This document shows, one piece after another, positions 16,671 to 57,300 of a DNA stretch of 64,000 nucleotides; position 1 is the first letter of the stretch; every line of letters begins with the position of its first letter. Under the pieces are notes generated by a model. It saw only the letters and a list, made by a program, of their open reading frames with translations, searched no databases and was not told the DNA's origin. This stretch comes from Meloidogyne chitwoodi (lineage: Eukaryota; Nematoda; Chromadorea; Rhabditida; Meloidogynidae). Location of the stretch: NCBI GenBank assembly GCA_015183035.1, contig JACZZP010000012.1:1426001-1490000 (forward strand), in the 5' to 3' direction. The position numbers and the translations under genes were made by a program.

Positions 16671-16689
16671 AAATATGCATATGTAATTG

Positions 16690-16766
16690 AGGAATTTGTC
16701 TATATGTTTGCCCGAGATTTTATAGCAAACTGATTGGGGAAGTAGAAATGGGAGCTTTTATATGTG
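16690..16766 (+). promoter_or_regulatory. Upstream element, copy A (TGATTGGGG box)
   Basis: Contains TTTTATAGCAAACTGATTGG, then GGAAGTAGAAATGGGAG. It aligns with copies at about 53.98-54.06 kb and 42.02-42.11 kb over some 75 bp. Here the TATA module follows after about 20 bp of spacer (TGTGTTTAAAAGTTC), a spacer that also precedes the TATA module at 39.34 kb. Confidence 0.5.
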
Positions 16767-16778
16767 TTTAAAAGTTCG

Positions 16779-16804
16779 ATACTATATAAACAGCGTATTT
16801 TACC
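16779..16804 (+). promoter_or_regulatory. TATA module A
   Basis: Reads GATACTATATAAACAGCGT followed by ATTTTA. TATATAAA is at 16783-16790 and the downstream GTATTTT box is present. The same module occurs at 39344, 54220 and 57272. An initiator-like CCATTC follows about 23 bp after the TATA box. Transcription from here is inferred. Confidence 0.55.
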
Positions 16805-16837
16805 ATTCTTCTGTTCTACGAGCAGCGCCAACTGTCT

Positions 16838-17945
16838 GTGTCCAACGTCTACGAGGAACGTCAACGGTCAGCTACACTAACGGAGGAAGCTCTATGGGCC
16901 AAGGTTTTGCGATCTACGCTAACGGCGGTGGTGCTTGAGACTAAGGTTTGGCGAGCTACGCTAACGGCGTTGGTTCTAGAGACTAAGGTTTGGCGAGCTA
17001 CGCTAACGGCGTTGGTTCTAGAGACTAAGGTTTGGCGAGCTACGCTAACGGCGTTGGTTCTAGAGACTTAGGTCTTAGGAGCTAAGCTAAGGCGTTAGTT
17101 CAATAAACTGGTGTCTTAGGAGCTAAGCTAAGGCGTTTGTTCAATAAACTGGTGTCTTAGGAGCCACGCTAAGGCGTTAGTTCTATGAGCCAAGGTTCTA
17201 GGAGTATGCTAACGTCTACAAGATACGCCAACGTCTACGAGCAACGTCAACGGTCTATGAGCTACGCTAACGCGGTGGTGCTTGAGACTAAGGTTTGGCG
17301 AGCTACGCTAACGGCGTTGGTTCTAGAGACTAAGGTTTGGCGAGCTACGCTAACGGCGTTGGTTCTAGAGACTTAGGTCTTAGGAGCTAAGCTAAGGCGT
17401 TAGTTCAATAAACTGGTGTCTTAGGAGCTAAGCTAAGGCGTTAGTTCAATAAACTGGTGTCTTAGGAGCTAAGCTAAGGCGTTAGTTCAATAAACTGGTG
17501 TCTTAGGAGCTAAGCTAAGGCGTTTATTCAATAAACTGGTGTCTTAGGAGCCACGCTAAGGCGTTAGTTCTATGAGCCAAGGTTCTAGGAGTATGCTAAC
17601 GTCTACAAGATACGCCAACGTCTACGAGCAACGTCAACGGTCTATGAGCTACGCTAACGCGGTGGTGCTTGAGACTAAGGTTTGGCGAGCTACGCTAACG
17701 GCGTTGGTTCTAGAGACTTAGGTCTTAGGAGCTAAGCTAAGGCGTTTGTTCAATAAACTAGTGTCTTAGGAGCCACGCTAAGGCGTTAGTTCTATGAGCC
17801 AAGGTTCTAGGAGTATTCTAACGTCTACGTGCATCATCAACGGTCTACGATCTACGCTAACGGCGATGATTTGTTGGCCAAGGTTCTAGGAGCTATGTTA
17901 ACGTTTACAAGATACGCCAACGTCTACAAGCTACGACAACGGTGA
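16838..17945 (+). repeat. About 42-bp minisatellite A with higher-order structure
   Basis: The main unit (core GAGCTACGCTAACGGCG, then TTGGTTCTAGAGAC) is 42 bp, and a 41-bp variant (GTCTTAGGAGCTAAGCTAAG) alternates in blocks. A larger block starting GTCTTAGGAGCCACGC recurs near 17153, 17541 and 17765. Read from GTG 16838 the first part is open for 77 codons (SNVYEERQRS, then units of TKVWRATLTALVLE); the rest is interrupted. The unit is homologous to minisatellite B at 39.5 kb. If it was once coding, the start codon position now reads GTG where locus B has ATG. Confidence 0.85.
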
Positions 17946-18638
17946 TGGTTCTGTGATGGTGGTGTGTAAAGTCAGAGAAAGTAGGAGATTGACTTCCTTT
18001 ATTATTTATTTTTATTGTTGTATATTATTTAGCGCGGTTTTCGGAGCCAGTGTCGACAGCTTGACTTAAAACTTGACTCATGCTTGATCATGTTTTAATT
18101 TCTCTATGTATTGTTTTGTTGGTAAATGTTTAATTATGTTATAGTTATTTTTTGTAGTTTCTGTTGTGTTAGACGATTGTAAATTTGGGTATCTGGATGA
18201 TTATTTCGTTATCTTGTTTGTTTATTTTGTTGGAAATGTAGCCTTTTCATATAAAAAATCCCCAAAAAACTTCTTTTTTACCATTTTAAAAATTTTGGGG
18301 ATTTTAATCATTTTGACAAAAAACGGATATAGAAAATTTGGCACGGATATATAATAGATATGGATACAGGCCCCACGTATTTACCCGGATACGGGTACCG
18401 AAATTCGTGTCCTGTCCACACCTGTTATAAACAATGAAATTTCCAAAAAAATACTTTGATAAAAAGTTTATTCATATTATATTTTAAATTAAAATTGTTA
18501 TATTTTAATTACATTGAGCAAAAGATATATAATTATAATATTCTAAAATTTAAAGAATTACCTAGCAAAATGTATATATTTAAAATAGGGGAAATGAGGT
18601 TTTAACATAGCTTAAATATTTATAAAATTAAACTTTAA
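17946..18638. other. Non-coding flank of minisatellite A
   Basis: Ordinary A+T-rich sequence. A 62-codon open frame at 18166-18354 has no splice signals or recognisable product and is not called. Confidence 0.45.
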
Positions 18639-19280
18639 GGTAAATGTGTAGTTGGCTATCTACCTTTACGCAAAGGACATTTGCAGTTCGCAAGCGCTCT
18701 TTGCATTTTTGGCGTTAGGAAAATTGCACGCTTATTTTTCCTTTTCAATTATGGTATGCCCTTTGGCACAGAGAGAAATGAGGAAAATAATTAATAATTA
18801 AATGAAAATAGATTTATTTTATAAATGATCAAAGATTATAAACTTGGGACATGGCTTCGTTTTATAAGTTAAATATGACAGTAGAATTTTTTAAACATTT
18901 TCATTAAATTCCTTTACTTACCCAACTAATAAATCCTCGGAAGAAAATTCTGGATTCCATTTTTCGACGATCAAATCGATATTGAATCAAGGAAAAATCC
19001 CAAATTTTAATTATTGAATATCTACAAGGTTTCCGACTATAGAAGACTAAAATGATCAGCCTCAACTGTGGTAGCGATATAAACATAAAGTGGCTCAATG
19101 GTTATTATTGGCGGTAATTTAATAATTTTCTTTTCTTTTTTCCCTCTATGTGCCTAAGGGCATACCATAATTGAAAAGGAAAAATAAGCGTGCAATTTTC
19201 CTAACGCCAAAAATGCAAAGAGCGCTTGCAAACTGAAAACTCCTTTTGCGTACAGGTAGATAGCCAACTACACATTTACC
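18639..19280. mobile_element. 642-bp foldback element with 8-bp target duplication
   Basis: The two ends are inverted copies for about 140 bp (left GGTAAATGTGTAGTTGGCTA, right TAGCCAACTACACATTTACC). The arms also share GCGTTAGGAAAATTGCACGC in inverse orientation. The direct repeat AACTTTAA lies immediately outside each end (18631-18638 and 19281-19288). An 8-bp duplication is typical of hAT-like insertions; Merlin and P elements also make 8-9 bp. The centre encodes no transposase, so it is non-autonomous. Confidence 0.88.
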
Positions 19281-19492
19281 AACTTTAATATACAAGCAAA
19301 AGAAAAAGTTTTATTTCAAAGAAGAGATAATTTTTCTAATTCTCAGCCAAAATTTTTTCTCTTGCCCTACTTTAAAGTTTAAATTTATATATTTTTAAAT
19401 ACATTTACCTATTTATTCTACATAAATTCGTAATTATTTTTTAGAGATTTTTTAAATATTATTTTATACATTTAACTTGTTTTGCCATAATT

Positions 19493-22418: not shown

Positions 22419-26451
<4,033 letters not shown>

Positions 26452-38611: not shown

Positions 38612-39343
38612 TAAAATAATATAATATTAAAAAAAAATAATTTAAATAATAAAGCCTTTTATCTTTTGTGCCTTTTCCCTTACCAAATAATAACATAAGA
38701 CTATACCTATATATAATCGTGTAACAATTTGACCTTTTTGTGCAACAATTATTTTTTGTTTTATTTTTTATTGTTTATTTTGTGATTAAATATTTTAGTA
38801 TTTTATATAATTAATTTAAATATAAATAAAAATACTATCTATTATAGCTTTGAATGGATAAGAGTTTAGTTAAGATTAAAATGCTACTATCTTTATCTGT
38901 TTTTTCAAGTCTCTTTCTCGAGATATACTTTATTCAAACTTATTTTTTAAATGTTAAGTCTGGATATATGACAAATTAAAATGTAACAAATTAGAAACAT
39001 ATTATTATATTGAACAATTAAAAAATTGTTGAGCTAGTCAAAAAATTATTTTATTTTATTCTATTTACTATTAAAAAATAGATTACAAAAATAAATAAAT
39101 AAATAAATACAATTACTAAATTATGGCCGCTAATTTTAGTTTTTTAACAACCTATATTTTGACTTTTTTTATAATAAAAACGACGAAAAATAAGTCGTTC
39201 CAAAATATTTTTATAAAGATTAAATAATTTAAAAGTCAATATCTTATTTTTAATTAATTAATTGATAAGCGGTGGTTTGTTTATATTTTGTAGTATAATA
39301 ATTTAGTGGAAGAGAAAATTGAGTTTTAGTGTTTTTAAAAGGG
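38612..39343. other. Non-coding flank before TATA module B
   Basis: A+T-rich. Its right part (about 39285-39343) contains TTAGTGGAAGAGAAAATTGAG, then a spacer TTTTTAAAAGG matching the one before TATA module A, so it may be a decayed copy of the upstream element. Confidence 0.4.
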
Positions 39344-39371
39344 ATACTATATAAACCGCGTATTTTAACAG
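39344..39371 (+). promoter_or_regulatory. TATA module B
   Basis: GATACTATATAAACCGCG followed by TATTTTA and ACAGTC. TATATAAA is at 39348-39355; the A of the initiator-like CAGTC lies 22 bp after the start of the TATA box. An ATG (ATGTCCAGAGCTACG) starts at 39376 and opens a 40-codon frame that runs into the minisatellite. Confidence 0.55.
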
Positions 39372-39375
39372 TCTT

Positions 39376-39660
39376 ATGTCCAGAGCTACGTCAACAAACG
39401 TCTATGAGCAGCGCCGCCAACGACTACGAGCAACGCCGACGACAACGAGCACCTCCAACGGTATTGCTTCTATGAGCAGACGTTCTGGAGCTACGCCAAC
39501 GGTGGTGGTTCTAGTAACTTTGTTATAGGAGCTACGCCAACGGTGGTGGTTCTAGTAACTTATGTTATAGGAGCTACGCCAACGGTGGTGGTTCTAGTAA
39601 CTTTGTTATAGGAGCTACGCCAACGGTGGTGGTTCTAGTAACTTATGTTATAGGAGCAAT
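39376..39660 (+). repeat. About 42-bp minisatellite B with leader ORF
   Basis: The leader (MSRATSTNVYEQRRQRLR) shares the words NVYEQR/ERQR with minisatellite A. Four units of 41-42 bp (GGAGCTACGCCAACGGTGG, then TGGTTCTAGTAACTT and TGTTATA) follow. Units alternate between ACTTTG and ACTTATG, so the frame shifts by one base from unit to unit. The last unit runs directly into kinase-derived sequence (GGAGCAATGTTGCTTGG). Confidence 0.85.
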
Positions 39661-40790
39661 GTTGCTTGGAAAACCGATAGATGATCTCCGGATGCAGCAA
39701 AGCGCAGGTTTTCAGCCGTCACCACTCTTCGGATTGGTATTCAATTTATTTGAGTAAGAAAATTTTAGTAAATAAATGTCAAATAATAATTATTATACTT
39801 TAAGGCCTTTTGCAGTCTCCATAAAGTGGATTCATTCATCGCGATGTGAAACCAGCAAATATCGCTGCAGGTCACAAGCGGCCAGATCTCATCTACCTCT
39901 TTGACTTTGGGTTAGCGCGCTTCATTTACACAGACGAGGACAAATTAATGCTGAGACCGCGTCGCAAGAAGGTGAAAATGAAACATTTCGTCCAAAAATT
40001 TCTTTATCTTCGCTTATTCTTTCAGATCCAGTTCCGTGGGACCTATCGCTACTGTTCGTTGAATGCGCAAAAGTGCATGGACCAAGGTCGAGTGGATGAT
40101 TTTGAAGTGTTTTGGTGTGTAATACTTATTTTTGAATGTAAAATTTTTTTGTAGTATACATTGATTGAATGCCGAAAGCGGAAGTTGCCTTGGACTGGAA
40201 TCAAACCAAAGGAATGCCAGTAAAAGAAGGAGATCATTACTAGCGCCGAGTTGCTTGAGGTAAATTATCCTTTTTTATCAAACAAATTTTGTAATATTAG
40301 GAATGTCCGCCTTCCTTCTCTCGTATCATGGAGAATTTGCGCCCACTTGGATTCGCTGATGAGTCCAAATAACGGTTCTCTCATTCAGTGGCTTACTGAA
40401 GATTTGCAAGCGGACTCAGAAAGCAGCAATAGTTTTGAATGGCAGCGTGCCGGTCAGTCAGTCGCTCGTGTTAAGAATGTCGAGGTAAATGGGTGATACG
40501 GAGGCAAGTTTTTCAGAGATGTTTGTGTGACTTTTAAATTTGAATAATTTTCAGGTAAAATCCGAAACTGCGCAGACAGATGTCAGTCCTTCACTACATT
40601 GGCTGTTTCAGACGAAGAAGATGGGAGCACAGTTGAATACGATGACACCATTGAGAACATGCCACCTGAAAAAAAATATGAATATAGATGCGATCAAAGC
40701 AAAGCAGCAGGAGGTAGCGGCAGAGAAGGAGATGACGGCCAAACCTCCAGAAGATAACAAGAAACCTTCAGAAGATGCCAAGAAATAATA
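39659..40790 (+). pseudogene. Casein-kinase-1/TTBK-like pseudogene lacking the N-lobe
   Basis: The remnant starts inside the kinase: MLLGKPIDDLRMQQSAGF corresponds to the hinge region (LLGxSLxDL). Next come FIHRDVKPANIAAG (catalytic loop HRD), YLFDFGLARFI (DFG), FRGTYRYCSLNA (activation segment), DDFEVFWC and ECRKRKLPWTGIKPKE, then ECPPSFSRIMENLRPLGF. These motifs are in the right order for the worm-expanded CK1/tau-tubulin-kinase family. It is broken: the HKV...FIHRD join needs a one-base frameshift, stops interrupt the frame after GIKPKECQ and after GFADESK, and the ATP-binding lobe is absent, its place taken by minisatellite B. Part of the 3' end (40540-40788) is still open but has no recognisable domain. 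Confidence 0.8.
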
Positions 40791-41110
40791 TAAAGATTAT
40801 TGCTATCAGTGTTCTCCTGACCGGGTTTCGGTCATGATCAAAAGTGACCTGACCTTGACTGATCTGACCCTCTGGTCAGGTAATTTTGATGACCGAAAAA
40901 AGGCCAGTCAGAATACTGAGTACTATCACATTTCCTTTTTGTATTGTGTCGTAACTATTTATTTGTATTATAATTGTAGGAAAATGAAATTTGTATTGAA
41001 AAAGTGAATAGGGTTTCGATGATTTGGTTGATCCCGTTTTGAATGGCAGTGGGAGATGACGACAAAACTCTAGATGATGCCAAGAAATGATATAAAGATT
41101 ATTACTATAA
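40771..41110 (+). repeat. Local duplication of pseudogene 3' sequence
   Basis: GATGCCAAGAAATAATATAA at about 40775 recurs as GATGCCAAGAAATGATATAA at about 41073, each followed by AGATTATT. The hairpin at 40817-40912 lies between the copies, which suggests a duplication around that insertion. A further TCATACATCATACTC repeat follows near 41.18-41.28 kb. Confidence 0.55.
40817..40912. repeat. 96-bp inverted repeat (hairpin)
   Basis: GGTCATGATCAAAAGTGACC on the left pairs with GGTAATTTTGATGACCGAAA on the right; the ends are GACCGGG and GCCAGTC. It lies just 3' of the kinase pseudogene and is probably a small foldback element. Confidence 0.65.
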
Positions 41111-41360
41111 GTTGTCGGTTTATGGAGAACTTTATATCCAGTGCTTGGAATTTTCGATTTTGTTCATACTCATACTTCATATCATCAAAAAAAGTTGCTC
41201 ATAAATCATACCGTCTATTTTTTCCCTCATACATCATACTCTATTTGTACATTTTTAGGCTTCATACATCATACTCATAAATTTAATAGGAAAAAAAAAT
41301 ATTTTTTATTATTATAAAAAATAAATTTTAAATAATTGTAAAAACAAAACTCTTCTCTTT

Positions 41361-41660: not shown

Positions 41661-43549
41661 TAAAATAAATATTTAATTAAAAAATAATAAATTAAATATA
41701 TTGTTAATACAAATTTATTTTTGTATTTAGTCTTCTGTTTTTGGTAAAAATAGCAGTTTCAAAGAATTTTAAATTTTCATAATTATATACATATTCTATC
41801 TTTCCATTTATAGAAAATTAATTAATAAAAATATTTAATTATTTTTTAGATTTTTTTATTAAAAAAATAAAATAATTTTTAGTAATTATGAGAATCAAGT
41901 TTATTTTGTAAAACTTTAATAAATTAAAGAAGAAAATTTAAAAAACATTTATATAGGTATTTGATTTATTATATATTTATCATGTGGTATTTATGAGAGA
42001 ATAGGTATTTTCAAATTTTATCTAATTATATAATGAGAATAGTTTGTCAGTCTTTTTGTCCAGGTTTTTATAGACAAATGATTGGGGTAACTAAAAATGG
42101 CGTTAGTTCTTTAAGCTAACTTGTTGTTTTTTTATAGCAATGTCTATGTTTTGGTAAGAATGTTTGGACCAATTATTTTGTTACATAAATTTGTTTATGT
42201 TTATTCATTTTTTTGTTTTGTTCTTTAGAAATGTTTATTTTGTAGTATGATGACTTTAATGATTTGGTTATTTCAGTTTTTTGTGTTTATTTTTGTTAGC
42301 GTAGTAGGTTGCCCGAAGGTTTTTTAGCAATAATAATTAGTATAAAATTTAAATTTTATTCATATAATAAAAATCATTTTCTTTATTTCATCCATTTTTT
42401 CATATTTTCACTGTAAAAAATATCACAATTTTTTACGTAACATAAAATATTTAAATAAATATTAAAAGAAAAAAATATTTATTTATCACAAAATCCAAGA
42501 ACAGTTTTAGCAAATGACAATTTATTATTATTAAAAAAACAAAATGCTAAAAAAAGAAAAATTTAATAAAAAAGAATGTATATTTATTTTAAAGTTCTCT
42601 TTAATATTATTTTAAATATTTTATAAATACATCTAAATTAATTATAAATATTAATTTTATATATTTTTGTTTATTTTATTTAAGGCCATTAAAATAATTA
42701 TTTTAATCAAAAAATAATTAAAAAAATAGTAAACAAAAGAATTTAAAAAATGAAAGTTATTTTAATTTTTAAAAATATATTTATTTTTTAATAATTTTTG
42801 GTCTAAAAAAATATTTTAATTAATTAATTTAATTATAATAATTAAAAAAATATTATTTTTTTAATTTTATAAAATTTAATTTAATTAAAATAAATTAATT
42901 AAGTATTTTTAAAAATAAAATTGTAATAAATATTTAATAAAATAATTTTAAATTTATTTTCTTCACTGATAAAAATTTTAATTGTTGAAGAAAATAAAAT
43001 AAAATTCAGATAATTTTAAATAAAAAATAAAATAAAAAAAATATATATTAATATTTTATTCATCAATTTATTCAAAAAATACATAAAAATAAATTTTATT
43101 AAATTATTAATATTCTTTTTTTAAAAAAATAAGAATAATATATTTTAGTTTCGGAGGGATAAACTAAACAAACGAGATGATTTTCCTAAGTAAATAAAAT
43201 AATAAAATTTAGTAATTATCAAACCTCTATTTAAAATAATTAGAGGAGAGTTTAAATAATATTAAATAATAGAAAGGAGATAAATATAATTAAAGAAGAC
43301 AATTTGTCTATTTTTGGTATATAAAAAGGGGGGAATAAAATAACAAAATTTAGAGGTCTCTAAAAGTATATTGAAAATATGTAAAATTAAAAAAAGGAGA
43401 GGTCTCTTGAGATTTATAAGAAAAAAATGCACAAGAAAAATGAGAAAAAAAAGAGGAGAGAATAAATGGGACAATAAAAATAATAATAAATTGGGCTTTT
43501 TTAATTTAAAAAATTAAATATTATAATTAAAATTAAATATATTATTTTA
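41661..43549. other. A+T-rich intergenic region with a solo upstream element
   Basis: No gene is supported. The only structured part is the solo TGATTGGGG element at about 42.02-42.11 kb, listed separately. A 70-codon frame at 43262-43474 (minus) is low complexity. Confidence 0.45.
42020..42110 (+). promoter_or_regulatory. Solo upstream element, copy E
   Basis: TTTTTATAGACAAATGATTG followed by GGGTAACTAAAAATGGCG, preceded by TATAATGAGAATAGTTTG. It aligns with the element before the 158-copy array (TATAATTGAGAATGTTTG ... TTTTTATAGACAAGTGATTG). No TATA module follows, so this may be a relic. Confidence 0.45.
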
Positions 43550-45172: not shown

Positions 45173-48100
45173 ATTTAAATATTTATTATTTTTTTATAAT
45201 CTGAAGAAAAATTTATATTTATTTTTTAATTAATTAAAATAAAATAAAAAATTATTTTGCCAAAAATAATTTTTTAAATAAAAATTATTTAATAAATTTT
45301 TGTGTAATATTATGTAATTTGACCCTAACAAAGAAAAATTAAAAGAAATTAATTGAACAAATTCTAATTTTTAAAAAATTCTCAAGGCTGAAAATCACAA
45401 GAAGTTAAAAATTAATTAATTAATTTTTATTTAAATAAATTAATTTATTTGATTAATGATTGATGTGTGTGCTCTCACACATTTTTGTTAATATAATTAA
45501 TTTATAATAAAAATGTTGTTATAATTTTTAATAAAATTTTAATTTAAAAAATAAAAAATTTTAAATATAAAAATAAAATAAATATTTATTTATTTTATTT
45601 GAACACAATAAAACAGAGAATGTGTCCATTTTTATTATAAAGCTAAATTTTTCGCGCATACCTACCTATATATTTATATAATTATTAAATATTTTAAAAA
45701 AGGAAAATCTGCACACCCGCCCCATTTCTTTTTTTCTTTCCTTTTTTTAAAACAAAACTCCCATTAGGATATAAAAGGGGTGGAGCTTTAAAACTTTTTG
45801 TGAATTTAAAAATTAATAGAGGCGTGTGTTAATATTAAAAATATTTAAAATTGACATTAAAGTCTTTTATTATTTTTTTAAATTTTAGAGTAATTATATT
45901 TATTTTGATTTATATATATTTTTTAAGATATTAAATAAATTTAAATTTATTTTTTTGAATAAATAAAATCTAGAAAGTAAATAAATATATTTAATAATAA
46001 TTATTATTATTATTTATTTATAAAAAATATATCTTTTTCTTTTTTTGAATTTAAAATAGGAGATATATTTATTTATTTTTTATTATGTACTTATTAGTAA
46101 TAAAAAGCTTTTAATTTAAAAATAAAAAATATTTACTCTTTTACAAAGAAAATATGTTTTGATAAATATTTTAAAAATAGTTAATTAAAATATTTTTAAC
46201 AAAAATATCTTTTTTTTTAAATAATAATATTATTGAAAATTGTTCTTTTTGCTTTTTTTTTATTTTTTATGCACTTTATTTAAATTAAAAAATAAAAAAA
46301 CAATTAGGTATATTTAGAAATTTCTAAAAAAATATTTTTACATATTAAAATATCAAAAATCCGGATTAGTAAAAATAAAAATAGAAAATAAAAATAAAAA
46401 ATAGTAAATAAATAATAAAAATAAGGAAAAATTATTTAAAAAAATATTAAAATAAAACACTTATTTAAATTTAAAATTACCAAAAATTGCAACGTTTAAA
46501 ATTATGAAACTTTTTTTTTAATAAAATAATTTTTAAGGACACGCCATTTTAATAGCTATTTAAATAAAACATTATATTATTATCATTATATGTATTTTTA
46601 GAAGGAAATAAAATAAATAAAAGAAAAGAAACTACCGGCGCCATTGTTCTCTCTTCTCTTCTTTAAATATACATATCACTCATCACATTCAATTATTTAA
46701 AAAATAATAATAATTTAAAAAATATATTTAAAGGATATATTAAAATAAAATAAAAAGAATTTATTTATTTATTTAAAGTTGTCTATATTTATTTTTATCA
46801 AATAATGCCAAAAATAGGAATTTATTTTCTCTCCTTTTTTTTCATTAAATATCAATTTCCGTTAAATTCTTTTTTGTTTTATATCTGTCTTTGACTAACC
46901 TAAAAAATCTTTTTTGCAAAAATATAAAAAAGGTAATATTATTATGTGAAGAAATATATTTCATCATAATTTTTTTGAAAAATTAAGTAAAAAGCTCAAT
47001 TGAAATTTTTTAAATAAAAAATTAGGATTTTATTAAATAAATATTTTTTTAAAATTTAATTTAATATTTTGTTTATTTAATTTTGGACATTTTTGAAATT
47101 AAATAAAATTATTTTAATTAAAAAAATTATTTTTAAACTTCCGATATTAAATTAAATATTTAAAATAAAAGGAAATAATAATATTTCTTTTACATATTTC
47201 TGTAAAATATTTAAAAAAAAAAAAAAGATGAAAGAATGAAATGAAAGAACACATTTACATTAGTATTTTATTTATTTATATCAAAATTATATTAAATATA
47301 TATGTCACGTTGATATTATTTAATAAAAAAAACTAAAAAAGTAACGGAAATTAAAGAAAAAAATTTTTCCCAAAAAAAAAGTTTCCAAAAAAAATTTTTT
47401 TTAATAAATTTATAAAATGACGAATATATTTTAAATAAATAAAATAAAATATTTTTAAATTTTAAAGATTATTTTAGTGTAAATCTGGAACAAAAAATAT
47501 TTAAATTTAATAAATAAATATTATGCAGAGAATTTAAAAAAAAAAAGAAATTTTATTAAATATTTATTTTTTAGGAATTTAAAAAAAATAAAAATTTATT
47601 ATTTTATAAAGGAAAAAAAAAAGAATAAATAAATAAATATATTTATATTTTTATTTATTTAAATAAATAAATTAAAATTAATTATTATTAATTACAGTAT
47701 TTAATGTAAAAAATTTAAAATTAAAAATAATACATATTTTTTAGTATAATAATAATTGGCATTTTATTTATTTAATTTTATTTATTTTATTGTTCATAAA
47801 ATTATTTTTAAAAGTAAAATTTATTTAAAAAAAATGCAAAAATTATTAAAAAAAATAAATCAAGCATAAATAAATAAAATAATATGTATTTGTTTAATAT
47901 ATTTATTTGCACTTTGTTAAAAAATAAAAAAAAATTCTTTGATAATAAATTATTTATTTAATACCTTTAAGCGTAAAATGATGACCAGATGTTGGCAATT
48001 AATTAAAATTAATAATAATAATATTTATTATATTTAAATAATTAAATATATATTTATATTTACGTAATAAATATATTTTAATAAATTAAAATATTTTTAT

Positions 48101-51100
48101 AATTTTTTTTTTAAATTTTAAAATATTGGGAATTAAAATAAAAATACAAAATTAATTTCTTCTTTTTATTTGTGTTCTTTAACAAAATTATATATAAATT
48201 AAATAGTATATTTTATTGTATTTTTTAATAATAAGAAATGTGTAAATTGAGAATCTTTTAATTTTTTAAAATTAAAAGATTAATTTAAAATAATTTATAA
48301 AAATATATTTAAATATATCTTTAATATAATTTTATTTTTAATTTATTTTTAATTTAAAGAATAAGAGCAGTGCTTGGAAATTTTAATTTCGCTCGTACTT
48401 GTCCTCTTATACGAGTACGAATTTTGGTACGAATTTCCAAGCAATGAATAGGAGTTAAGTAATTTTTTTAAAAAATAAAAATTTTTAAGACAGGTGATTT
48501 TACAATTTATTTAATTAAAAAAAAAAGTATATCATGATATGTTTAATAAATATTTAATTTGTTTAAGCAAAAGACTTTAGAAAATAAAAATATTTAGGCA
48601 AACTTTTGAAGAAAAACTAGCAAGAAGAATTAAACAAAAATAAATTATTTTAAATTATAAAAATAATTTTATTTTTTTAAAAGTCCAAAAAGGAGAGGAC
48701 AGAAAATAATTAAAAGTAATTAAAAATAATTAATTATTTTATTTGAGTCATTTTATTATTTTTTAGTATTTTATAAATAAATATAATTATTTTTATAACC
48801 AATTAAATGTTAAATAAAAAAATATTTTAAATATTTTTTTTAAATTTAAATTTATAAAAAAAAAAGAATTTTCCGCTCTCTAGTTTTTAAAAAACTGTGA
48901 CGCTTTTAGCTATTTTATATATTTTTAAAATATTTTGATAAGAGGTTGTTGTTAGGTAAAAATAATTAAAATAATAAAGTACGAAAATCATTAAAATATA
49001 ATAAATCTGTCATTCTGTGAAATAAATATAAATACAAAATATTAAATAGATATTAATTAATTACCTCATTTACTTATATAATTTAAATATTTAATTTATT
49101 TTTTAATTTTAGACAAATTGGCAATTAATTTTTATAAAAATCAAAAATACAAAATAAATAAATAAATTAATTAAATAAATTAAAAAATATATATTTAAAA
49201 TTAAGTAAAAGTGTTATATAATAGAATTTAAAGAAATTAAAATTAAAAAGTAAAAAAAAGTAAAATCCACAGGGCTGTAGGCCTGAAAATTAGAAAAATA
49301 AGGGAAAGACTGCATTAAAACATTTTAATTAAATAATAAATTTTATAAAATTTATTATTTAATTAAAAATATCATAAGATATTTAAAAAGCACAAAGATT
49401 ATAAAATATAAATAAATAAATAAATTGAACAGGTTCTAATAAACTTTACAAAATAAAAATATATTTTTATAATTTTTGATCATTTCTTTTTTAGTCTTTT
49501 TTTAAAAAGAAAAAAAATTAATTAATTAAATAAAATGTATAAAATACTTTGAGTTTTTATTTAATTAATTTAACAAAATAATTGTACCAAATATTTATTT
49601 TTGTAATTAAAAGAAATTAATTTTAAGTAAAAAACAATTTCCAAAATTATTAAATTTGGCAAAAAAATTAAATAAATTTTTTTTTTAAATATTTTTCATT
49701 CTTTTAACTAAAAAATAAGTTTTTTTAAAATAAAATATAAATTTGTCTAGTCAAAAAAACTTGATAAATTTAATAAATTTTTATAATAAAAATAAAATAG
49801 TTAAATTTATAAAAAATAAAATAAAATGTTTTTTTTCACTGAAAATTGAATTTTATTTTTTTATATATTTTTCTTTTTTCTTTTTAAAATAAAAAAATAA
49901 ATAATTTAATTTATTATTTTGTGATTTTTGGTTAGAAAAATGCCTTTTTTTTAATAAAATATATTTCTTTTTATTGAATAAATAAAAAATAATTTCTCAA
50001 TTTATTTTTAAAAAATCAACTAAAATCATCTTTTGTAATTATAATACCTAATTAAATTTTAATAATTTTATGCCTAGAAGATAATATCATTTCTTATTTA
50101 TTTTTATTTTTTTAAAATTATTTTAAATAATTAATCTTTTATAATTAATTTATTTTTCGAAATTAACTTTAGACAAATAATAAAATTATTATTATTTTAA
50201 ATAATAAATATTATTTTAGTGACAGGTGTAAAAATATTTAAAAAATAAAAAAAAAAATTATTTACGTGATAATAATTTTTGTTTAATTAATTAATTAATT
50301 TTTAAACAATTAACGTATTTTAAAAAATTAAAGAAAATATTTACCTAAATTTTAAATTTATTATTTAAATTCTAAAAAATAAAAAAAAAATTAATTTTTA
50401 ATTTATAAATTATTCTAATAATTTTACAAAAGTTTATTAAATATTTATTTGTTTTTTAAATTTATTTTTTTGAACTTTTCTTAAAATTAAAAATTAATAT
50501 TTAATTAAATGTCAAATTAAAATAATATTTAAATAAAATAAATAAATATTTAAATTAATTAAATTAAATAAGTTTTAAAATGATTAACTAAAAAAATAAT
50601 TTAATTACTCTTGGACCTCTAAAATATATTAGAATTGTTGAACAGACTTAAAATATATTGAACATTTAATTTCGGTATCTTTTAGCAAGGACAAATTTAT
50701 TAGACAAAATAAAATCCCAAAAAATGTTTTAAAATATAGGAAATGAAATTATTAGCCAAGAGGGAAGACAGGGAAGTCTTTTTATGGTTTGATCATTGTT
50801 TCTTCAAAAAAGTCGAGAAACTGACCCGAAAACTGGGAAATAGGAAAGGAACTCGTTACAGGATTTAATAAATTTATATAATTATTTATTTATTTTAAAA
50901 TAAATATATTTAAAATTTAGCTAGAAAATACTAAAAAAATTAATTAAAAGTTCTTTTTTTATAAAAATAGATAAAATGATGTTACAAATATTTTAAGTAA
51001 AATTAAATTTTCCCAGGAGAGATTTTATTTAAAATAAATTAATTTAAAAACTGTGCCCTTCTTCATAAATAAATAAAAAAATAAAATATTTTATCTTTTG

Positions 51101-53406
51101 CCAAAATAAGTGACGTAAAAAAATAAAATAAATTAAACTAAATTATAATATTTTTAATATTTTTTTTTAATTTTAAAAAAAAATATTTAAAAAATATTCT
51201 ACCGTAGCAAAAGAAAAATTATTAGTCTTTTTAATATTTATTATTTAGGCAAAAATAAAAATTAATTAAAATAAAAAAATAGCTATATATAAAAATCTTT
51301 ATTTATTTATAGAATATATTTAATTATTATTTTATTAAAAAAAAACATTTAAAAATAAATTGAAAGAACAAAAATCATTTAAAGATATTTTTATTTTTCT
51401 TTATATTTTGTCATTTTAAATAATTAAAAATAAATATTTATTTTTTATTTTAATATTTTATAAAAATGTTTTTATTTAAAATAACAAAATTAAAATTTAA
51501 ATATTTAAAAAAAAAATATTTATTAGCAGGACTTAAATTTTAAAAATATTTTTTGTTTTTTTTATTCAATTTTTAAGCATAATATTATTAAAAAAAGAAA
51601 TTTAAAAAAAATAGTAATATTTAAATTATATTAATATTTAATAAAATTATCAAAAATTAAATTATTATTTTTTATATACGCATTTACAATTTTTAAAAAT
51701 AAAATAATTTCCTTTTTTTTCTATTTTTGTATTCGTTAATTTAATATTTTTATTTTTGTTTCAATTTAAAAAAATAAATTATATTAAATATGTACTTATT
51801 TAAGTACTCCAAAATAAATATATTTTAAGCTTTTAATAAAAAGAAAATTAAATCTTTTTCTAAAATTAGTAAAATAAATAAATAATATTTATATAAATTT
51901 TATTTCCTTGTTTATTAAAATATTTAAAAAAAAAGTATCAAATATTTAAAAATAAATTTATTGGTAATAAACTTGATTAAAATAAATTATTTAAAAATTT
52001 ATTAAAAAATAAATATAAAATAATTTAATTTTTAAAATAAAATAATTATTTTTAATTAATTATAAAATATTTTAAATAAAAAATATTTAAAAAAAGATTA
52101 TTTATTTTAAATAATATAAAATGGTTAATTTTTAAATTTAATTTAAAAATAAATAATATTTATTTTTACTATTTTTTAAAATATTTTTGGTAAAATTCTT
52201 TTTAATTTTTCAGTTTTAAAATAAAATAAAATAGAAGATAATACATATTAGAATAAATTGGAACTTTTGTAATAAAAATATTAATATAAATAATTAAAAA
52301 TATATTATTTTATTTTAGGTATAATTATTAAATTAAATATTAAATATTATTTATTTAAATAAATATTTTAAAATTAATTAATTAAAATATTAATATTTTA
52401 ATTAAAAATATTTTAATCATTTGGTGAAATACGTAATCAAAGAAAAAAATTAAATAAAAAATAAAATATTAAAATTAGAAAAATAATATTTATTTATTTA
52501 AGTACGCGGTAGACAATAAAATTTGGTCTGACATTTTTATGAAGCGGAAAATTAAAAAAAAATATTAAAAAATAGTAAAAAATATTATTACGTAATTTTC
52601 AATTATTTAAAAATAGGAAGAACAAAAAAAGAATCAAAAATATATAACTACCTAAATCGTCACAACATTGAGAAAATAAATAAATAAATAAAATAATTAT
52701 ATAATACCTATATAAATATATTCTTTTATTTTTATCCTTCACTTGCGCAACAAAATTAAAAATAAATAAATAAATTAAGAAGAATAAAATAAAATAAAAT
52801 AAAAAAGGTATACCTATTTATTTAGGTATTATTCATCCTTTTTTATTTTATTTATTTATTTAATAATATTATTTGGAAAAATTAAGGTCATAATAATAAA
52901 TATATTATTAATAAAAATAAAAAAGAATAAATAAATTAATTTCTAATTTTTCAATAAAAATTTAAATTTAGGTAATATATTTAAAAATAAAATAAATAAA
53001 TTATTTGCTTATTAAAATTTTAAAAAATAACCAAAATATTTATTTATGATAAAAAAATAAAATAAAATAAATAATTTAATTTTTAATATAAAATGTAATT
53101 TAATTATTGAATATTATTTTATAATTTTTTACAAAAATATCTTCTCCAATTACTACGAGAATAATTATATTTATTATTTTTTAATTTGTTAGATTATTTT
53201 TTTAATTTAAAAAATTTTGTTTTTTTTTATTTAAAATATTAGATAAAAAAATTAATATTTGAAAATTTTTAATTATTTATTTTCTGAAATAAAATATAAC
53301 TCACTTTTTATTTAATAAAACTTTAATATAAAAGCACATTTAGAAAATAAAATTTTATTTTTTTGTCTTTATGTGCTTCACTAAATAAATAATCTAAACA
53401 ACAAAA
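45173..53406. other. 8.2-kb A+T-rich gene desert
   Basis: The stretch is close to 90% A+T and consists of A/T runs and TAAATAAA-type words on both strands. I find no exon, no splice-flanked frame and no RNA gene. Small islands of normal composition occur at about 46.63 kb (CTACCGGCGCCATTG), 48.37 kb (hairpin, listed separately) and 50.74-50.87 kb (AAGAGGGAAGACAGGGAAG). It could be a very large regulatory interval, a decayed repeat field or a matrix-attachment-like region. Confidence 0.6.
48371..48444. repeat. Inverted repeat in the A+T desert
   Basis: GTGCTTGGAAATTTT on the left pairs with GAATTTCCAAGCAATG on the right, with a second pair inside (CTCGTACTTG and CGAGTACGAA). It is the only G+C-containing structure for kilobases and could be a small foldback element or a hairpin RNA. 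Confidence 0.5.
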
Positions 53407-53861
53407 ATGCGTTCAAATTCATTTGGAAATGAGTCTAATTATTTAATAATTATTCAATTTGTTGTTCTTCTGTTTATGTAAGTTCTTTTTTTAATTAATT
53501 AATTTTATTTTAAAGGATTCTTGTAAATTCAATTATTTTGTGTACTCGACATAAGAAAAGTCAAAAACAATCCAAAGAATATCCACAAATGCAAGGATTA
53601 GTGACTGAAGCACAATGTACTAATGTAGACGAAACACATAATACTGTTGTATATGCAACATTAAATACGTAAGAAATTGAAATTTAAATTTAAATTAAAA
53701 AATAATATTTTTATTTTAATTAAAGAGGAATGGGTGAAACAGCAACAATTGGAGGTTCTTCTACTGTCGTTGAAACTGTGAAGAAAGGATCGGGATCAAA
53801 AATTGTAAAAAAAGAAACGAAAGATACGACAAAAATGGAGACTTCATATAAAAATTCGTAA
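53407..53861 (+). CDS. Small single-pass membrane protein with ITIM-like motif
   Basis: Three exons give about 120 residues. MRSNSFGNESNYL is followed by the helix IIIQFVVLLFMILVNSIIL and a basic stop-transfer CTRHKKSQKQSK. The cytoplasmic tail has HNTVVYATLNTG, which fits the inhibitory tyrosine motif pattern (V/I)xYxxL, then ATIGGSSTVVETVKKGSG and ends METSYKNS. Both introns are in phase and start with GTAAG. There is no extracellular domain to speak of, so it would act as a short adaptor. No family is recognised. A role in SH2-domain binding is inference from one motif. Confidence 0.7.
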
Positions 53862-53981
53862 TAAAATGTCTTCTCTATATAAGAAGAAAAGGAGAATATA
53901 AATAAATAAAAATATATATTTATGTAAAATAATATAATTTTGTTTGTTTTCTAATTTTTGCTATTGTTGTATAAAATCTAA

Positions 53982-54060
53982 TTATATAATTGAGAATGTT
54001 TGTGTGTTTGTTTGGCTTTTTATAGACAAGTGATTGGGGGAAGTGAAAATGGGGGGTTTT
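53982..54060 (+). promoter_or_regulatory. Upstream element, copy C
   Basis: TTTTTATAGACAAGTGATTG followed by GGGGAAGTGAAAATGGGG. It matches copies A and E. In this locus the TATA module is about 160 bp downstream because a run of short repeats is inserted between them. Confidence 0.5.
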
Positions 54061-54071
54061 TATAGTAGGGT

Positions 54072-54218
54072 TTGCAACTTGAAATAAGGTTTAAGTTTAA
54101 ATTTAAAACTTGAAAACAAACTTAGAACTTGAAAATAAACTTGGATTTGAAACTTGAAAATAAACTTTAACTTAAAACTTGAAAATGAACTTAGAACTTG
54201 AAAATAAACTTGAACTTG
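54072..54218 (+). repeat. Imperfect AACTTGAAAATAAACTT tandem repeats
   Basis: About seven degenerate units of 17-22 bp (AACTTGAAAATAAACTTGG, AACTTGAAAATGAACTTAG) lie between the upstream element and TATA module C. Confidence 0.8.
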
Positions 54219-54219
54219 G

Positions 54220-54250
54220 ATACTATATAAACCCTGTATTTTGATCAGTC
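54220..54250 (+). promoter_or_regulatory. TATA module C with initiator-like TCAGTC
   Basis: GATACTATATAAACCCTG followed by TATTTTGATCAGTC. TATATAAA is at 54224-54231 and the A of TCAGTC lies 23 bp after its start. The coding ATG is at 54316, giving a leader of about 70 bases. Confidence 0.6.
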
Positions 54251-54315
54251 TTCAACGCTACTACATTTCAACAACAAACAAACAACAACGCTTCTTGCTG
54301 AATTTTGCTTGAAAT

Positions 54316-56861
54316 ATGGACGTCGACGAACCTTGCTGCTCCAGTGATGCCGGCGAACCATGCTGCTCCAATGACGAGACGAACCCTGCTGCTCGAGTGA
54401 TGCCAGGCGAAAAAGGAGTAGTCGTGCTGAAGAGTCTTAGTCCGAGACACAAGAGTCAGAGACACAAGAGTCAGAGACACAAGAGTCAGAGACACAAGAG
54501 TCAGAGACACAAGAGTCAGAGACACAAGAGTCAGAGACACAAGAGTCAGAGACACAAGAGTCAGAGACACAAGAGTCAGAGACACAAGAGTCAGAGACAC
54601 AAGAGTCAGAGACACAAGAGTCAGAGACACAAGAGTCAGAGACACAAGAGTCAGAGACACAAGAGTCAGAGACACAAGAGTCAGAGACACAAGAGTCAGA
54701 GACACAAGAGTCAGAGACACAAGAGTCAGAGACACAAGAGTCAGAGACACAAGAGTCAGAGACACAAGAGTCAGAGACACAAGAGTCAGAGACACAAGAG
54801 TCAGAGACACAAGAGTCAGAGACACAAGAGTCAGAGACACAAGAGTCAGAGACACAAGAGTCAGAGACACAAGAGTCAGAGACACAAGAGTCAGAGACAC
54901 AAGAGTCAGAGACACAAGAGTCAGAGACACAAGAGTCAGAGACACAAGAGTCAGAGACACAAGAGTCAGAGACACAAGAGTCAGAGACACAAGAGTCAGA
55001 GACACAAGAGTCAGAGACACAAGAGTCAGAGACACAAGAGTCAGAGACACAAGAGTCAGAGACACAAGAGTCAGAGACACAAGAGTCAGAGACACAAGAG
55101 TCAGAGACACAAGAGTCAGAGACACAAGAGTCAGAGACACAAGAGTCAGAGACACAAGAGTCAGAGACACAAGAGTCAGAGACACAAGAGTCAGAGACAC
55201 AAGAGTCAGAGACACAAGAGTCAGAGACACAAGAGTCAGAGACACAAGAGTCAGAGACACAAGAGTCAGAGACACAAGAGTCAGAGACACAAGAGTCAGA
55301 GACACAAGAGTCAGAGACACAAGAGTCAGAGACACAAGAGTCAGAGACACAAGAGTCAGAGACACAAGAGTCAGAGACACAAGAGTCAGAGACACAAGAG
55401 TCAGAGACACAAGAGTCAGAGACACAAGAGTCAGAGACACAAGAGTCAGAGACACAAGAGTCAGAGACACAAGAGTCAGAGACACAAGAGTCAGAGACAC
55501 AAGAGTCAGAGACACAAGAGTCAGAGACACAAGAGTCAGAGACACAAGAGTCAGAGACACAAGAGTCAGAGACACAAGAGTCAGAGACACAAGAGTCAGA
55601 GACACAAGAGTCAGAGACACAAGAGTCAGAGACACAAGAGTCAGAGACACAAGAGTCAGAGACACAAGAGTCAGAGACACAAGAGTCAGAGACACAAGAG
55701 TCAGAGACACAAGAGTCAGAGACACAAGAGTCAGAGACACAAGAGTCAGAGACACAAGAGTCAGAGACACAAGAGTCAGAGACACAAGAGTCAGAGACAC
55801 AAGAGTCAGAGACACAAGAGTCAGAGACACAAGAGTCAGAGACACAAGAGTCAGAGACACAAGAGTCAGAGACACAAGAGTCAGAGACACAAGAGTCAGA
55901 GACACAAGAGTCAGAGACACAAGAGTCAGAGACACAAGAGTCAGAGACACAAGAGTCAGAGACACAAGAGTCAGAGACACAAGAGTCAGAGACACAAGAG
56001 TCAGAGACACAAGAGTCAGAGACACAAGAGTCAGAGACACAAGAGTCAGAGACACAAGAGTCAGAGACACAAGAGTCAGAGACACAAGAGTCAGAGACAC
56101 AAGAGTCAGAGACACAAGAGTCAGAGACACAAGAGTCAGAGACACAAGAGTCAGAGACACAAGAGTCAGAGACACAAGAGTCAGAGACACAAGAGTCAGA
56201 GACACAAGAGTCAGAGACACAAGAGTCAGAGACACAAGAGTCAGAGACACAAGAGTCAGAGACACAAGAGTCAGAGACACAAGAGTCAGAGACACAAGAG
56301 TCAGAGACACAAGAGTCAGAGACACAAGAGTCAGAGACACAAGAGTCAGAGACACAAGAGTCAGAGACACAAGAGTCAGAGACACAAGAGTCAGAGACAC
56401 AAGAGTCAGAGACACAAGAGTCAGAGACACAAGAGTCAGAGACACAAGAGTCAGAGACACAAGAGTCAGAGACACAAGAGTCAGAGACACAAGAGTCAGA
56501 GACACAAGAGTCAGAGACACAAGAGTCAGAGACACAAGAGTCAGAGACACAAGAGTCAGAGACACAAGAGTCAGAGACACAAGAGTCAGAGACACAAGAG
56601 TCAGAGACACAAGAGTCAGAGACACAAGAGTCAGAGACACAAGAGTCAGAGACACAAGAGTCAGAGACACAAGAGTCAGAGACACAAGAGTCAGAGACAC
56701 AAGAGTCAGAGACACAAGAGTCAGAGACACAAGAGTCAGAGACACAAGAGTCAGAGACACAAGAGTCAGAGACACAAGAGTCAGAGACACAAGAGTCAGA
56801 GACACAAGAGTCAGAGACGCTTGAGTCAGAAATGCTTGAGTCATAGACGAGACGCTTGAGT
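54316..56861 (+). CDS. Repeat protein: short Cys-rich head and 158 x RHKSQ
   Basis: One uninterrupted frame of 847 codons, then a stop. The head (43 residues) has MDVDEPCCSSDAGEPCCSND, in which EPCCS occurs twice, then ETNPAARVMPGEKGVVVLKS. From codon 44 the pentapeptide RHKSQ repeats exactly 158 times (54445-56814) and the frame ends RRLSQKCLSHRRDA. The product would be extremely basic and hydrophilic with no signal peptide or membrane helix. It sits behind a TATA module, with an ATG in reasonable distance, so transcription and translation are possible. It is equally possible that the frame is open only because the 15-bp unit is a multiple of three without stops; the reverse strand is open as well (SLTLV units). 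Evidence for a real protein is therefore weak, though the unique head argues for it. Confidence 0.4.
54445..56814 (+). repeat. 158-copy perfect 15-bp minisatellite
   Basis: The unit AGACACAAGAGTCAG repeats 158 times with no variant seen by eye. It is purine-rich on the plus strand (per unit A 7, G 4, C 3, T 1). The array is bounded by degenerate copies only on the 3' side. Perfect identity over 2,370 bp implies very recent expansion, ongoing homogenisation or an assembly effect. Confidence 0.97.
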
Positions 56862-57215
56862 CATAGACGCTTAAGGTCTGAAACGTTTGAGTCATAGACG
56901 CTTGAGTCAAAACGCTTGAGTCAGAGATGCTTGAGTCAGAACGCTTGAGTCAGAGATGCTTGAGTCAGAACGCTTGAGTCATAGATGCTTGAGTCAGAAC
57001 GCTTGATCAACGTAAAGAGGCACTTGAAGCTGAGTCGCAGACACCTAAGAATGAAAACTTGAATAAGAGACAAGTCGATTAAGTCAAGGTCATTTGAGTC
57101 TGAGTCAAAAGGTTATTTGAGTCTGAGTCAAAAGGACACTTTAGACTAAATCAAGGACACCGAGTCTAAGTCAAGGCCACTCGAGTCTCGAGTTAAGAAC
57201 ACATGAGTCTGAGTC
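56815..57215 (+). repeat. Degenerate tail of the minisatellite
   Basis: Variant units AGACGCTTGAGTCAT, AGATGCTTGAGTCAG and AACGCTTGAGTCAG give way to longer, looser GAGTCTGAGTCAAAAGG units toward 57.2 kb. Divergence increases with distance from the perfect core. Confidence 0.85.
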
Positions 57216-57271
57216 AAAAAAATTTGTTTTAAACATTTCTTAGAATTTAAATTAAGATTGAACATAAAATG

Positions 57272-57300
57272 TATACTATATAAACCCAGTATTTTGCTTA
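57272..57300 (+). promoter_or_regulatory. TATA module D, before the OB-fold gene
   Basis: GTATACTATATAAACCCA followed by GTATTTTGCTTACT. TATATAAA is at 57277-57284, 77 bp before the start codon of the OB-fold gene. The match to modules A-C extends through GTATTTT. Confidence 0.6.

What the first reader, a model, noticed from the sequence alone, without database searches (positions are those of the whole stretch)
16690..57300. A recurrent TATA promoter module fronting three coding-type tandem-repeat loci and an OB-fold gene
Seen: GATACTATATAAAC with a GTATTTT box a few bases downstream occurs at 16779, 39344, 54220 and (first base changed) 57272. In two copies the downstream CAGTC is also shared. 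Loci A and B further share the spacer TTTAAAAG before the module, and loci A, C and a solo copy at 42.02 kb share a TGATTGGGG element. Three modules are followed within 40-100 bp by a leader and then a tandem array with a unit of 15 or 41-42 bp; the fourth precedes a predicted single-strand-binding protein. Unrelated repeats behind the same promoter suggest a dispersed family of transcribed repeat loci or a mobile element that carries promoter plus repeat. I know of no described system with this layout.
Basis: partly seen in the sequence, partly recalled or inferred. Interest (0 to 1): 0.8.

Follow-up and report, generated by a model that had tools for sequence, protein, structure and literature searches.

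The report
Helitron promoter with attached tandem repeats
The repeated promoter belongs to a family of rolling-circle jumping genes (Helitrons) in a plant-parasitic nematode genome; it sits before the element's own genes, and shortened copies carry the same promoter joined to tandem repeats, a known kind of element with some unusual twists.

Summary
The module is real: 4 copies at up to 1 mismatch in the window against 0.05 expected, and 206 genome-wide against 29 for the reversed control. It is best read as the core promoter of a Helitron family in a root-knot nematode, probably Meloidogyne chitwoodi. Locus C plus the "single-strand-binding" gene form one element, 53977-58474: A|TC at the 5' end, hairpin plus CTAG|T at the 3' end. 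Sibling copies encode the Helitron Rep/helicase behind the same promoter, and the "leader" of locus C is that protein's N-terminus. The second gene has its own copy of the promoter (23/25 identical, flanks at chance). Locus A is a truncated terminal-inverted-repeat (Mutator-like) element carrying the Helitron 5' end, promoter and array. Locus B has the module, an array related to A's and a kinase fragment; its ends are unresolved. Of 23 exact modules examined, 22 lie in these families and 20 have a GC-rich array within 600 bp (one inside a nested insertion; controls 3.6%). The link between promoter and repeats reflects shared descent inside transposons. Rice Mothra Helitrons are a close precedent. 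Transcription and the OB fold are unproven. Clustering in contig centres is unexplained.

The parts
53977..58474 (+). Helitron copy (locus C plus the 57 kb gene), 4498 bp, inserted between A (53976) and T (58475)
   Evidence: 5' terminus shared with other copies and 3' hairpin-CTAG end paired with it on the same strand
53977..54074 (+). Helitron 5' terminal region (TCTAATTATATAATTGAGAATG...TGATTGGGG...)
   Evidence: nhmmer E 6e-23, but this copy was in the training set; BLAST homology begins at 53974-53976 with L029, L037 and L041, but at 53917 with L033
54219..54243 (+). TATA promoter module of the Rep gene (here in front of a Rep N-terminus)
   Evidence: 64 places genome-wide match a 29-bp version at <=3 mismatches, 0 in control, 4 of them 1.56-1.63 kb upstream of Rep domains
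54316..56859 (+). 847-aa ORF: Rep N-terminus (MDVDEPCCSSDA...) running into (SQRHK)n
   Evidence: compare MDADEPCCSN... in L009/L011/L013 and MDSNEPCCSSDARRKRKSRAEE in Meloidogyne hapla P0001
54439..56830 (+). 15-bp tandem array AGTCAGAGACACAAG, about 160 copies
   Evidence: TRF score 4756
56831..57217 (+). degenerate 21-29 bp repeats continuing the array
57272..57296 (+). second copy of the promoter module, in front of the OB-like gene
   Evidence: 23 of 25 identical to 54219-54243; flanks 19/60 and 18/60; 20 shuffles gave at most 20/25
57354..58147 (+). 211-aa gene, 5 exons (57354-57409, 57450-57600, 57639-57822, 57858-58040, 58086-58147); candidate Helitron single-strand-binding (OB/RPA-like) protein
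   Evidence: splice reading; relatives downstream of the same promoter at six other places, two of them on near-duplicate contigs C16 and C17
58444..58474 (+). Helitron 3' end: hairpin GTTCGCCC-GTA-GGGCGAAC, 8 nt, CTAG
   Evidence: sequence; pattern hit; the same end also follows the C6 copy of the gene
42021..42319 (+). solo mini-Helitron without the module (5' end and most of the 3' end kept)
   Evidence: 5' HMM E 8e-14 over 42021-42102, 3' HMM E 4e-26 over 42212-42319
16575..18239 (+). locus A: left terminal inverted repeat (16575 to about 16673), Helitron-like 5' region (16680-16762), module, 41-42 bp array, tail; right inverted repeat missing
16778..16801 (+). promoter module of locus A
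16842..17943 (+). 41-42 bp GC-rich array of locus A
39175..41337 (+). locus B unit (left edge approximate): module, 41/83-bp array, kinase gene fragment; ends not resolved as Helitron
   Evidence: same left edge in L034 and L047; right edge differs (L034 to 41337, L047 to 40728)
39343..39366 (+). promoter module of locus B
39487..39657 (+). 41/83-bp array of locus B, related to A's array
39828..39974 (+). protein kinase fragment (GFIHRDVKPANIAAGHKRPDLIYLFDFG...)
   Evidence: PF00069 E 4.7e-6, below Pfam's own score cut-off

Best explanation
The module is the core RNA polymerase II promoter of a Helitron (rolling-circle transposon) family. In full-coding copies it lies inside the 5' end (256 bp in from it in the two coding copies whose 5' end is listed, C3 and C7) and just upstream of the start codon of the Rep/helicase (about 62 bp between the 29-bp module and the ATG in the three copies where the ATG was read; 65 bp in the window). 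In window locus C, most of that coding region is missing and a 15-bp minisatellite stands in its place behind the Rep N-terminus. A second copy of the same promoter precedes a small gene that is probably the element's single-strand-binding helper. Shorter copies keep the two ends, the promoter and a GC-rich array, and would be moved by Rep/helicase from the full copies. Locus A arose when a Mutator-like transposon picked up the Helitron 5' end with promoter and array and then multiplied. Locus B carries the same promoter and a related array in front of a kinase gene fragment, by an unresolved route. Shown by sequence: ends, A|T target, promoter position, coding siblings, shared arrays. Inferred: transcription, protein functions, direction of the Helitron-to-inverted-repeat transfer, array origin by slippage.
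For: Termini: the 5' pattern occurs 114 times genome-wide, 0 in control; the 3' hairpin-CTAGT pattern 21 times, 0 in control. 14 of those 21 pair with a listed 5' end on the same strand, 420-4498 bp apart, 0 in wrong order or strand. Flanks are A before TC and T after the 3' end in 12 of 13 elements with both ends (ends of L030, L032, L045 and the window element adjusted by eye from that printout). Coding: PF14214 Rep in the genome, best E 1e-55; L013 has Rep plus PIF1. The promoter lies 1560-1627 bp upstream of Rep in 4 copies (C3, C7, C28 twice). 48 of 64 C-type promoters have a listed 5' end 156-303 bp upstream, 0 opposite. The locus C leader equals the Rep N-terminus. OB-like gene: downstream of this promoter at 7 places; the C6 copy has the same 3' end. 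Two-promoter match 23/25. 22 of 23 exact modules examined fall in the families; L042 does not. Locus A: L048 has inverted repeats and a 9-bp duplication CCGAATCTC; 20 of 36 such repeat ends have a listed exact module within 1 kb, 19 of them at 199-224 bp, 0 opposite.
Against: No clean empty site was found: L044's joined flanks gave only their own halves; the window's gave their own halves plus a weak 68% AT-rich match across the junction at C7, not trusted. The OB-like protein has no Pfam match at E<=0.1, no PDB match and no protein-database match. The 5' HMM finds no Helitron end at the window's locus B or L034, only E 1.1e-3 at L047, and none at L030. No listed OB-like match lies near a listed Rep match, so no copy was seen with both genes. 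Only 35 of 100 listed exact modules have a listed 5' end 60-700 bp upstream (lists truncated at 100 places, 5' list at 2 mismatches). The 22-base 5' string alone is not proof of an end: a second hit in L036 is followed by unrelated sequence. L041 ends CTAT and L036 ATAG. BLAST homology with L033 runs 60 bp beyond the window's 5' end. No transcript data.
Confidence: 0.87

Rival explanations
1. A new system of dispersed, promoter-driven transcribed repeat loci, where promoter plus array is the functional unit and transposon sequence is incidental.
For: 20 of 23 exact modules have a GC-rich array within 600 bp (one of them, L039, inside a nested insertion) against 143 of 4000 controls; the cassette is kept in copies with no coding role and is found in two kinds of transposon.
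Against: 22 of 23 examined modules sit in transposon families with shared sequence around them, so the association follows from descent. A mini-Helitron exists without the module (window 42021). The only unassigned module, L042, has no array.
Confidence: 0.07
2. Ordinary host promoter motif: the module is a common TATA-type promoter of this nematode that happens to recur.
For: It sits at a promoter-like place before two genes; most of the 206 hits were not read, so host genes among them cannot be excluded.
Against: Homology extends about 100 bp upstream to a fixed terminus and elements end in a hairpin 3' end; 22 of the 23 exact modules read are in transposon families.
Confidence: 0.04
3. The inverted-repeat (Mutator-like) element is the original owner, and Helitrons took the promoter from it.
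For: 20 of 36 inverted-repeat ends have a listed exact module downstream; L031 has an A-type right inverted repeat inside Helitron ends.
Against: The inverted-repeat copies contain almost the whole Helitron 5' end (HMM positions 7 to 91-99 in L040, L046, L048 and the window), 16 of 36 inverted-repeat ends have no listed exact module within 1 kb, and coding Helitrons have the promoter upstream of Rep.
Confidence: 0.06

Closest known systems
Mothra Helitrons of rice (Roffler et al. 2015, PMC4683698; abstract, section 6 and passages read)
   Same: Non-autonomous Helitrons with blocs of tandem repeats; a mother element with an RPA-like gene but no Rep/helicase; an autonomous sister family with similar ends.
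   Different: Animal host; the second gene has no detectable similarity to RPA here; a shared TATA module precedes both genes (the words promoter and TATA have 0 occurrences in that paper's main text); the repeats stand behind a Rep N-terminus.
Canonical animal Helitrons (definition as in PMC4067079, passages read)
   Same: 5' TC, 3' hairpin near CTRR, A|T target without duplication, Rep-PIF1 protein.
   Different: Animal Helitrons are described there as typically encoding a single Rep/helicase ORF; here a second gene occurs on sibling copies.
Helitron-borne satellite arrays, e.g. Crassostrea gigas (PMC8268682; passages read) and DINE-1/HINE (PMC4067079; passages read)
   Same: Short tandem arrays inside Helitron-like elements that spread through the genome.
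   Different: Here the arrays begin about 30-230 bp after a TATA module; several array lineages share one promoter.
Mutator-like transposons carrying captured DNA (Pack-MULE type; recalled, no paper read)
   Same: About 100-bp inverted repeats, 9-bp target duplication in L048, foreign DNA inside.
   Different: The captured DNA is a Helitron promoter with array rather than a host gene; the transposase link rests on one C6 neighbour only.

Membership tests
Helitron | 5' end TC and 3' end CTRR | tested here: met
   Window element TCTAATT...CTAG. Of 13 elements with both ends, 11 end in CTRR (10 CTAG, 1 CTGG in L045); L036 ends ATAG and L041 CTAT
Helitron | hairpin about 11 bp before the 3' end | tested here: met
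   8-bp stem ending 8 nt before CTAG in the window; CGCCC-GAA-GGGCG ending about 10 nt before CTAG in the short family
Helitron | insertion between A and T, no target duplication | tested here: met
   12 of 13; L041 ambiguous
Helitron | clean empty site | tested here: inconclusive
Helitron | Rep (HUH) plus PIF1-type helicase in one protein | tested here: met
   Met in siblings with the same promoter, not in the window copy: PF14214 8e-55 and the start of PIF1 8e-7 in L013; the 91% identical Meloidogyne hapla protein lists both domains
Helitron | transposition activity | not testable with these tools
   no polymorphism or expression data
Mothra-like Helitron with RPA-like gene | second protein is an RPA/OB single-strand-binding protein | tested here: inconclusive
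   Gene is intact and lies within Helitron ends, but no credible Pfam, PDB or database match
Helentron | AP endonuclease domain on Rep/helicase | tested here: inconclusive
   None among precomputed domains of the M. hapla relative; the C-terminus of the copies in this genome was not read
Mutator-like (locus A) | long terminal inverted repeats and 9-bp target duplication | tested here: met
   Met in L048 only: inverted repeats aligned over about 97 positions, 9-bp duplication CCGAATCTC. The window copy, L040 and L046 show no clear right repeat (best local scores 27, 40 and 20 against 111 in L048)
Mutator-like (locus A) | transposase of the MULE family with the same repeats | tested here: inconclusive
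   One repeat variant at C6:1386495(-) lies about 1.36 kb from a PF10551 match at C6:1384974(-); no other of the 36 repeat ends was seen beside one of the 26 listed PF10551 matches

The most novel reading that the evidence does not exclude
A promoter-plus-minisatellite cassette has become a mobile unit in its own right. It started as a Helitron transposase promoter, was passed to a cut-and-paste transposon, and now seeds transcribed tandem repeats concentrated in the middle of chromosomes, where the repeats or their RNA act in the chromosome biology of these holocentric nematodes. The central clustering (60 of 64 exact modules in the middle 60% of contigs of known length; 60 of 67 5' ends) is unexplained; it is weaker for the C-type promoters (23 of 27 and 14 of 18) and not seen for MULE transposases (7 of 15) or PF14214 matches of all Helitron families (12 of 20). 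The human CENP-B box as printed in PMC9673304 is not a feature of the arrays (best match 3 of 17 mismatches at one place, no shuffled control).
Probability: 0.1. Interest if true: 0.75.

Novelty: new variant of a known kind. Interest (0 to 1): 0.4.

Why it matters
It gives a compact case of how a transposon family erodes into layers: coding copies, helper-gene copies, and short copies that keep only ends, promoter and an array. It also shows one promoter shared by two genes of an animal Helitron, and the same promoter and array present in both a rolling-circle transposon and a cut-and-paste one. For annotation it warns that long repeat ORFs such as (SQRHK)n and kinase fragments behind this promoter are more likely transposon products than host genes. 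The chromosome-centre clustering makes a link between Helitron spread and satellite or centromere biology in Meloidogyne directly testable.

Tried and rejected
Rfam (gathering cut-offs) and tRNA scans of the window found nothing, so a known non-coding RNA family is not indicated. Ciliate code was considered because only 12 standard ORFs reach 100 aa; table 6 gave overlapping ORFs everywhere, and short introns, as in the 57 kb gene, explain it better. Selection for coding of the 15-bp array: (SQRHK)n is in frame with the ATG in 4 of 5 copies, but those four look like two pairs by leader sequence, and L041 is out of frame, so this is weak. Origin of the 15-mer from Rep codons RERHQSLR: 7 of 24 mismatches, reached by 1 of 100 shuffles (L009 and L013 only); suggestive only. 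CENP-B box: not a feature of the arrays. Empty sites: inconclusive. The A element as a purely Helitron copy was rejected for the copies with inverted repeats.

Dropped or biased rows: the 5' HMM was trained on the 5' regions of 8 of the 23 modules and the 3' HMM on the 6 short copies. The 5' HMM hits 18 of 23 modules at E<=1e-3; counting only untrained ones, 10 of 15. The 3' HMM hits 8 untrained places on the + strand; weaker hits on the - strand overlap the palindromic ends. In one search the array counted for L039 lies in the nested insertion, so 19 of 23 without it. The module and 5'-terminus lists show only the first 100 places (of 206 and 114). In some searches only contigs of known length were used (64 of 100 modules, 67 of 100 termini), and nearby copies are not independent.

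Literature absence: searches for Meloidogyne+Helitron (43 papers, 20 listed), Helitron+Meloidogyne+RepHel (0) and Pack-MULE+Helitron+promoter+nematode (8) listed no title or abstract start describing this family; most of the listed papers were not opened.


Full report
What was checked. The module is in the window at four places. At up to one mismatch, four hits against 0.05 expected is far beyond chance. In the whole genome (47.5 Mb, 30 contigs) there are 206 hits at up to one mismatch, against 29 for the pattern read backwards.

Which organism. The best relatives of the Rep protein (L013) are 91% identical in Meloidogyne hapla and 76% identical in Heterodera trifolii. Meloidogyne chitwoodi is listed with a 47.4 Mb genome (PMC11118728, passages) and its reference with an N50 of 2.3 Mb (PMC12002905, passages), which fits this assembly. 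A 30-contig assembly of that species is from recall. The species is therefore likely but not proven.

Anatomy of the Helitron. Reading outward from the module, copies share about 100 bp that begin with TCTAATTATATAATTGAGAATG. That string occurs 114 times at up to two mismatches, 0 in control. The 3' end CGCCCG(A/T)AGGGCGA...CTAGT occurs 21 times, 0 in control, and 14 of 21 pair with a listed 5' end on the same strand with none in the wrong order or strand. In 12 of 13 elements with both ends the flanks are A and T without a duplication; 11 of 13 end in CTRR. These are the defining ends of canonical Helitrons as given in PMC4067079 (passages).

The window element. Locus C and the gene at 57 kb are one element, 53977-58474. 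It holds the 5' end, the module at 54219, a start codon at 54316, the 15-bp array, a second module at 57272, a five-exon gene of 211 aa, and a hairpin plus CTAG at its 3' end. The peptide after the start codon, MDVDEPCCSSDA..., matches the start of the Rep/helicase in sibling copies (MDADEPCCSN...) and in M. hapla (MDSNEPCCSSDARRKRKSRAEE); copy L041 keeps more of it.

The promoter precedes the transposase. A 29-bp version of the module occurs 64 times at up to three mismatches, 0 in control. 48 of 64 have a listed 5' end 156-303 bp upstream and 0 an opposite one. Four lie 1560-1627 bp upstream of a Rep domain: C3, C7 and two on C28; C3 and C7 also have a listed 5' end 256 bp before it. Comparing with the locus ranges and the start codons, about 62 bp separate the module from the ATG in L009, L011 and L013. 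The C28 copies keep open frames of up to 1996 aa, which suggests recent activity. The module before the second gene is 23/25 identical to the first, while the 60 bp on either side match at chance level (19/60 and 18/60); 20 shuffles reached at most 20/25. The same short sequence at the same kind of place before two genes, with unrelated flanks, is the best evidence in hand that it works as a promoter. Transcription itself was not tested.

The second gene. Relatives lie downstream of the same promoter at C1, C2, C6, C11, C16 and C17 as well as in the window; C16 and C17 may be duplicate contigs. None of the 22 listed matches lies near a listed Rep match of this family. By position and size it resembles the RPA-like helper genes of other Helitrons, but no credible profile, structure-sequence or database match was found. 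Its OB fold is an inference.

Copies without coding sequence. Twenty exact-module loci were read at length (all listed exact hits on C1, 12, and C2, 4, and 4 of 5 on C3) plus three in the window. By homology they divide into: short Helitrons of about 410-550 bp, 6; locus C type, 6; locus A type, 7; locus B type, 3; unassigned, 1 (L042). 20 of 23 have a GC-rich tandem array within 600 bp, against 143 of 4000 control positions; the one counted for L039 lies in a nested insertion. The A, B and short arrays share GCTACGC-type units, and A and B align at 71% over 250 bp.

Locus A. L048 shows a 2304-bp unit with inverted repeats of about 97 aligned positions and a 9-bp duplication, CCGAATCTC, as in Mutator-like elements (recalled). 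Inside it lie most of a Helitron 5' end, the module and the array. Of 36 places with this repeat end, 20 have a listed exact module within 1 kb on the same strand, 19 of them at 199-224 bp, and none on the opposite strand. A variant of the repeat lies about 1.36 kb from a MULE transposase match on C6. L031, L043 and L038 carry A-type arrays with Helitron 3' ends, so the two element types have probably exchanged sequence more than once. The window copy has the left inverted repeat only.

Locus B. Three copies share a left edge near 39175 and a kinase fragment downstream. A Helitron 5' end is barely detectable in L047 (E 1.1e-3) and not in the window copy or L034. Gene capture by a Helitron is possible but not shown.

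Comparison with what is known. Mothra in rice (PMC4683698: abstract, section 6 and passages) has repeat blocs, an RPA-encoding element without Rep/helicase and an autonomous sister family. Helitron-borne satellite arrays are known from the Pacific oyster (PMC8268682, passages) and DINE-1-like elements (PMC4067079, passages). The finding belongs to this group. Its variant features are the use of one promoter sequence before two genes, the retention of that promoter in array-bearing copies, and the presence of promoter plus array in an inverted-repeat transposon.

An unexplained pattern. On the 13 contigs of known length, 60 of 64 exact modules and 60 of 67 listed 5' ends lie in the central 60%. 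The C-type promoters show it less strongly (23 of 27 and 14 of 18), and MULE transposases (7 of 15) and PF14214 matches of all families (12 of 20) do not. Nearby copies are not independent, so the p values for the first two (9e-10, 8e-8) are too small. Meloidogyne satellites with holocentric distribution and CENP-B-box-like motifs are described (PMC9673304, passages), but that box is not a feature of these arrays.

Verdict. A known kind of transposon accounts for the finding, with features that a Helitron specialist would want to follow.

Noticed in passing
G000 contigs C1-C30 (module and 5'-end coordinates): This Helitron family clusters in the middle of contigs: 60 of 64 exact modules and 60 of 67 5' ends in the central 60% of the contigs of known length, unlike MULE transposases (7 of 15) or PF14214 matches of all families (12 of 20).
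   Followed up: partly
L029 (C1:727001-737000): A Polinton/Maverick-like stretch (integrase core E 2e-5, IVa2/A32-type ATPase E 1e-6) interrupts exon 2 of the second Helitron gene; the rest of that gene lies about 15.5 kb away. Described only.
   Followed up: partly
L039 (C1:2041001-2051000): Another insertion sits inside the promoter of a locus C-type Helitron, with an apparent 8-bp duplication ATATAAAC.
   Followed up: no
G000 C28:1102587-1123551: Cluster of four near-identical Rep domains, two of them 1173 bp apart and each reported in a 1996-aa open frame, as if duplicated within one transposase gene.
   Followed up: no
window 46000-54000: GC content falls to about 12-14% over roughly 8 kb just upstream of the 4.5 kb Helitron, whose array region is near 45% GC.
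   Followed up: no
G000 contigs C16 and C17: The two contigs carry the same features at coordinates differing by 24 bases, so they may be allelic or duplicate contigs.
   Followed up: no
window 39828-39974 and onward to about 40780: A truncated kinase gene remnant follows the B array in the three copies read; it begins at the catalytic HRD region and resembles the expanded casein-kinase-like families of nematodes (recalled).
   Followed up: partly
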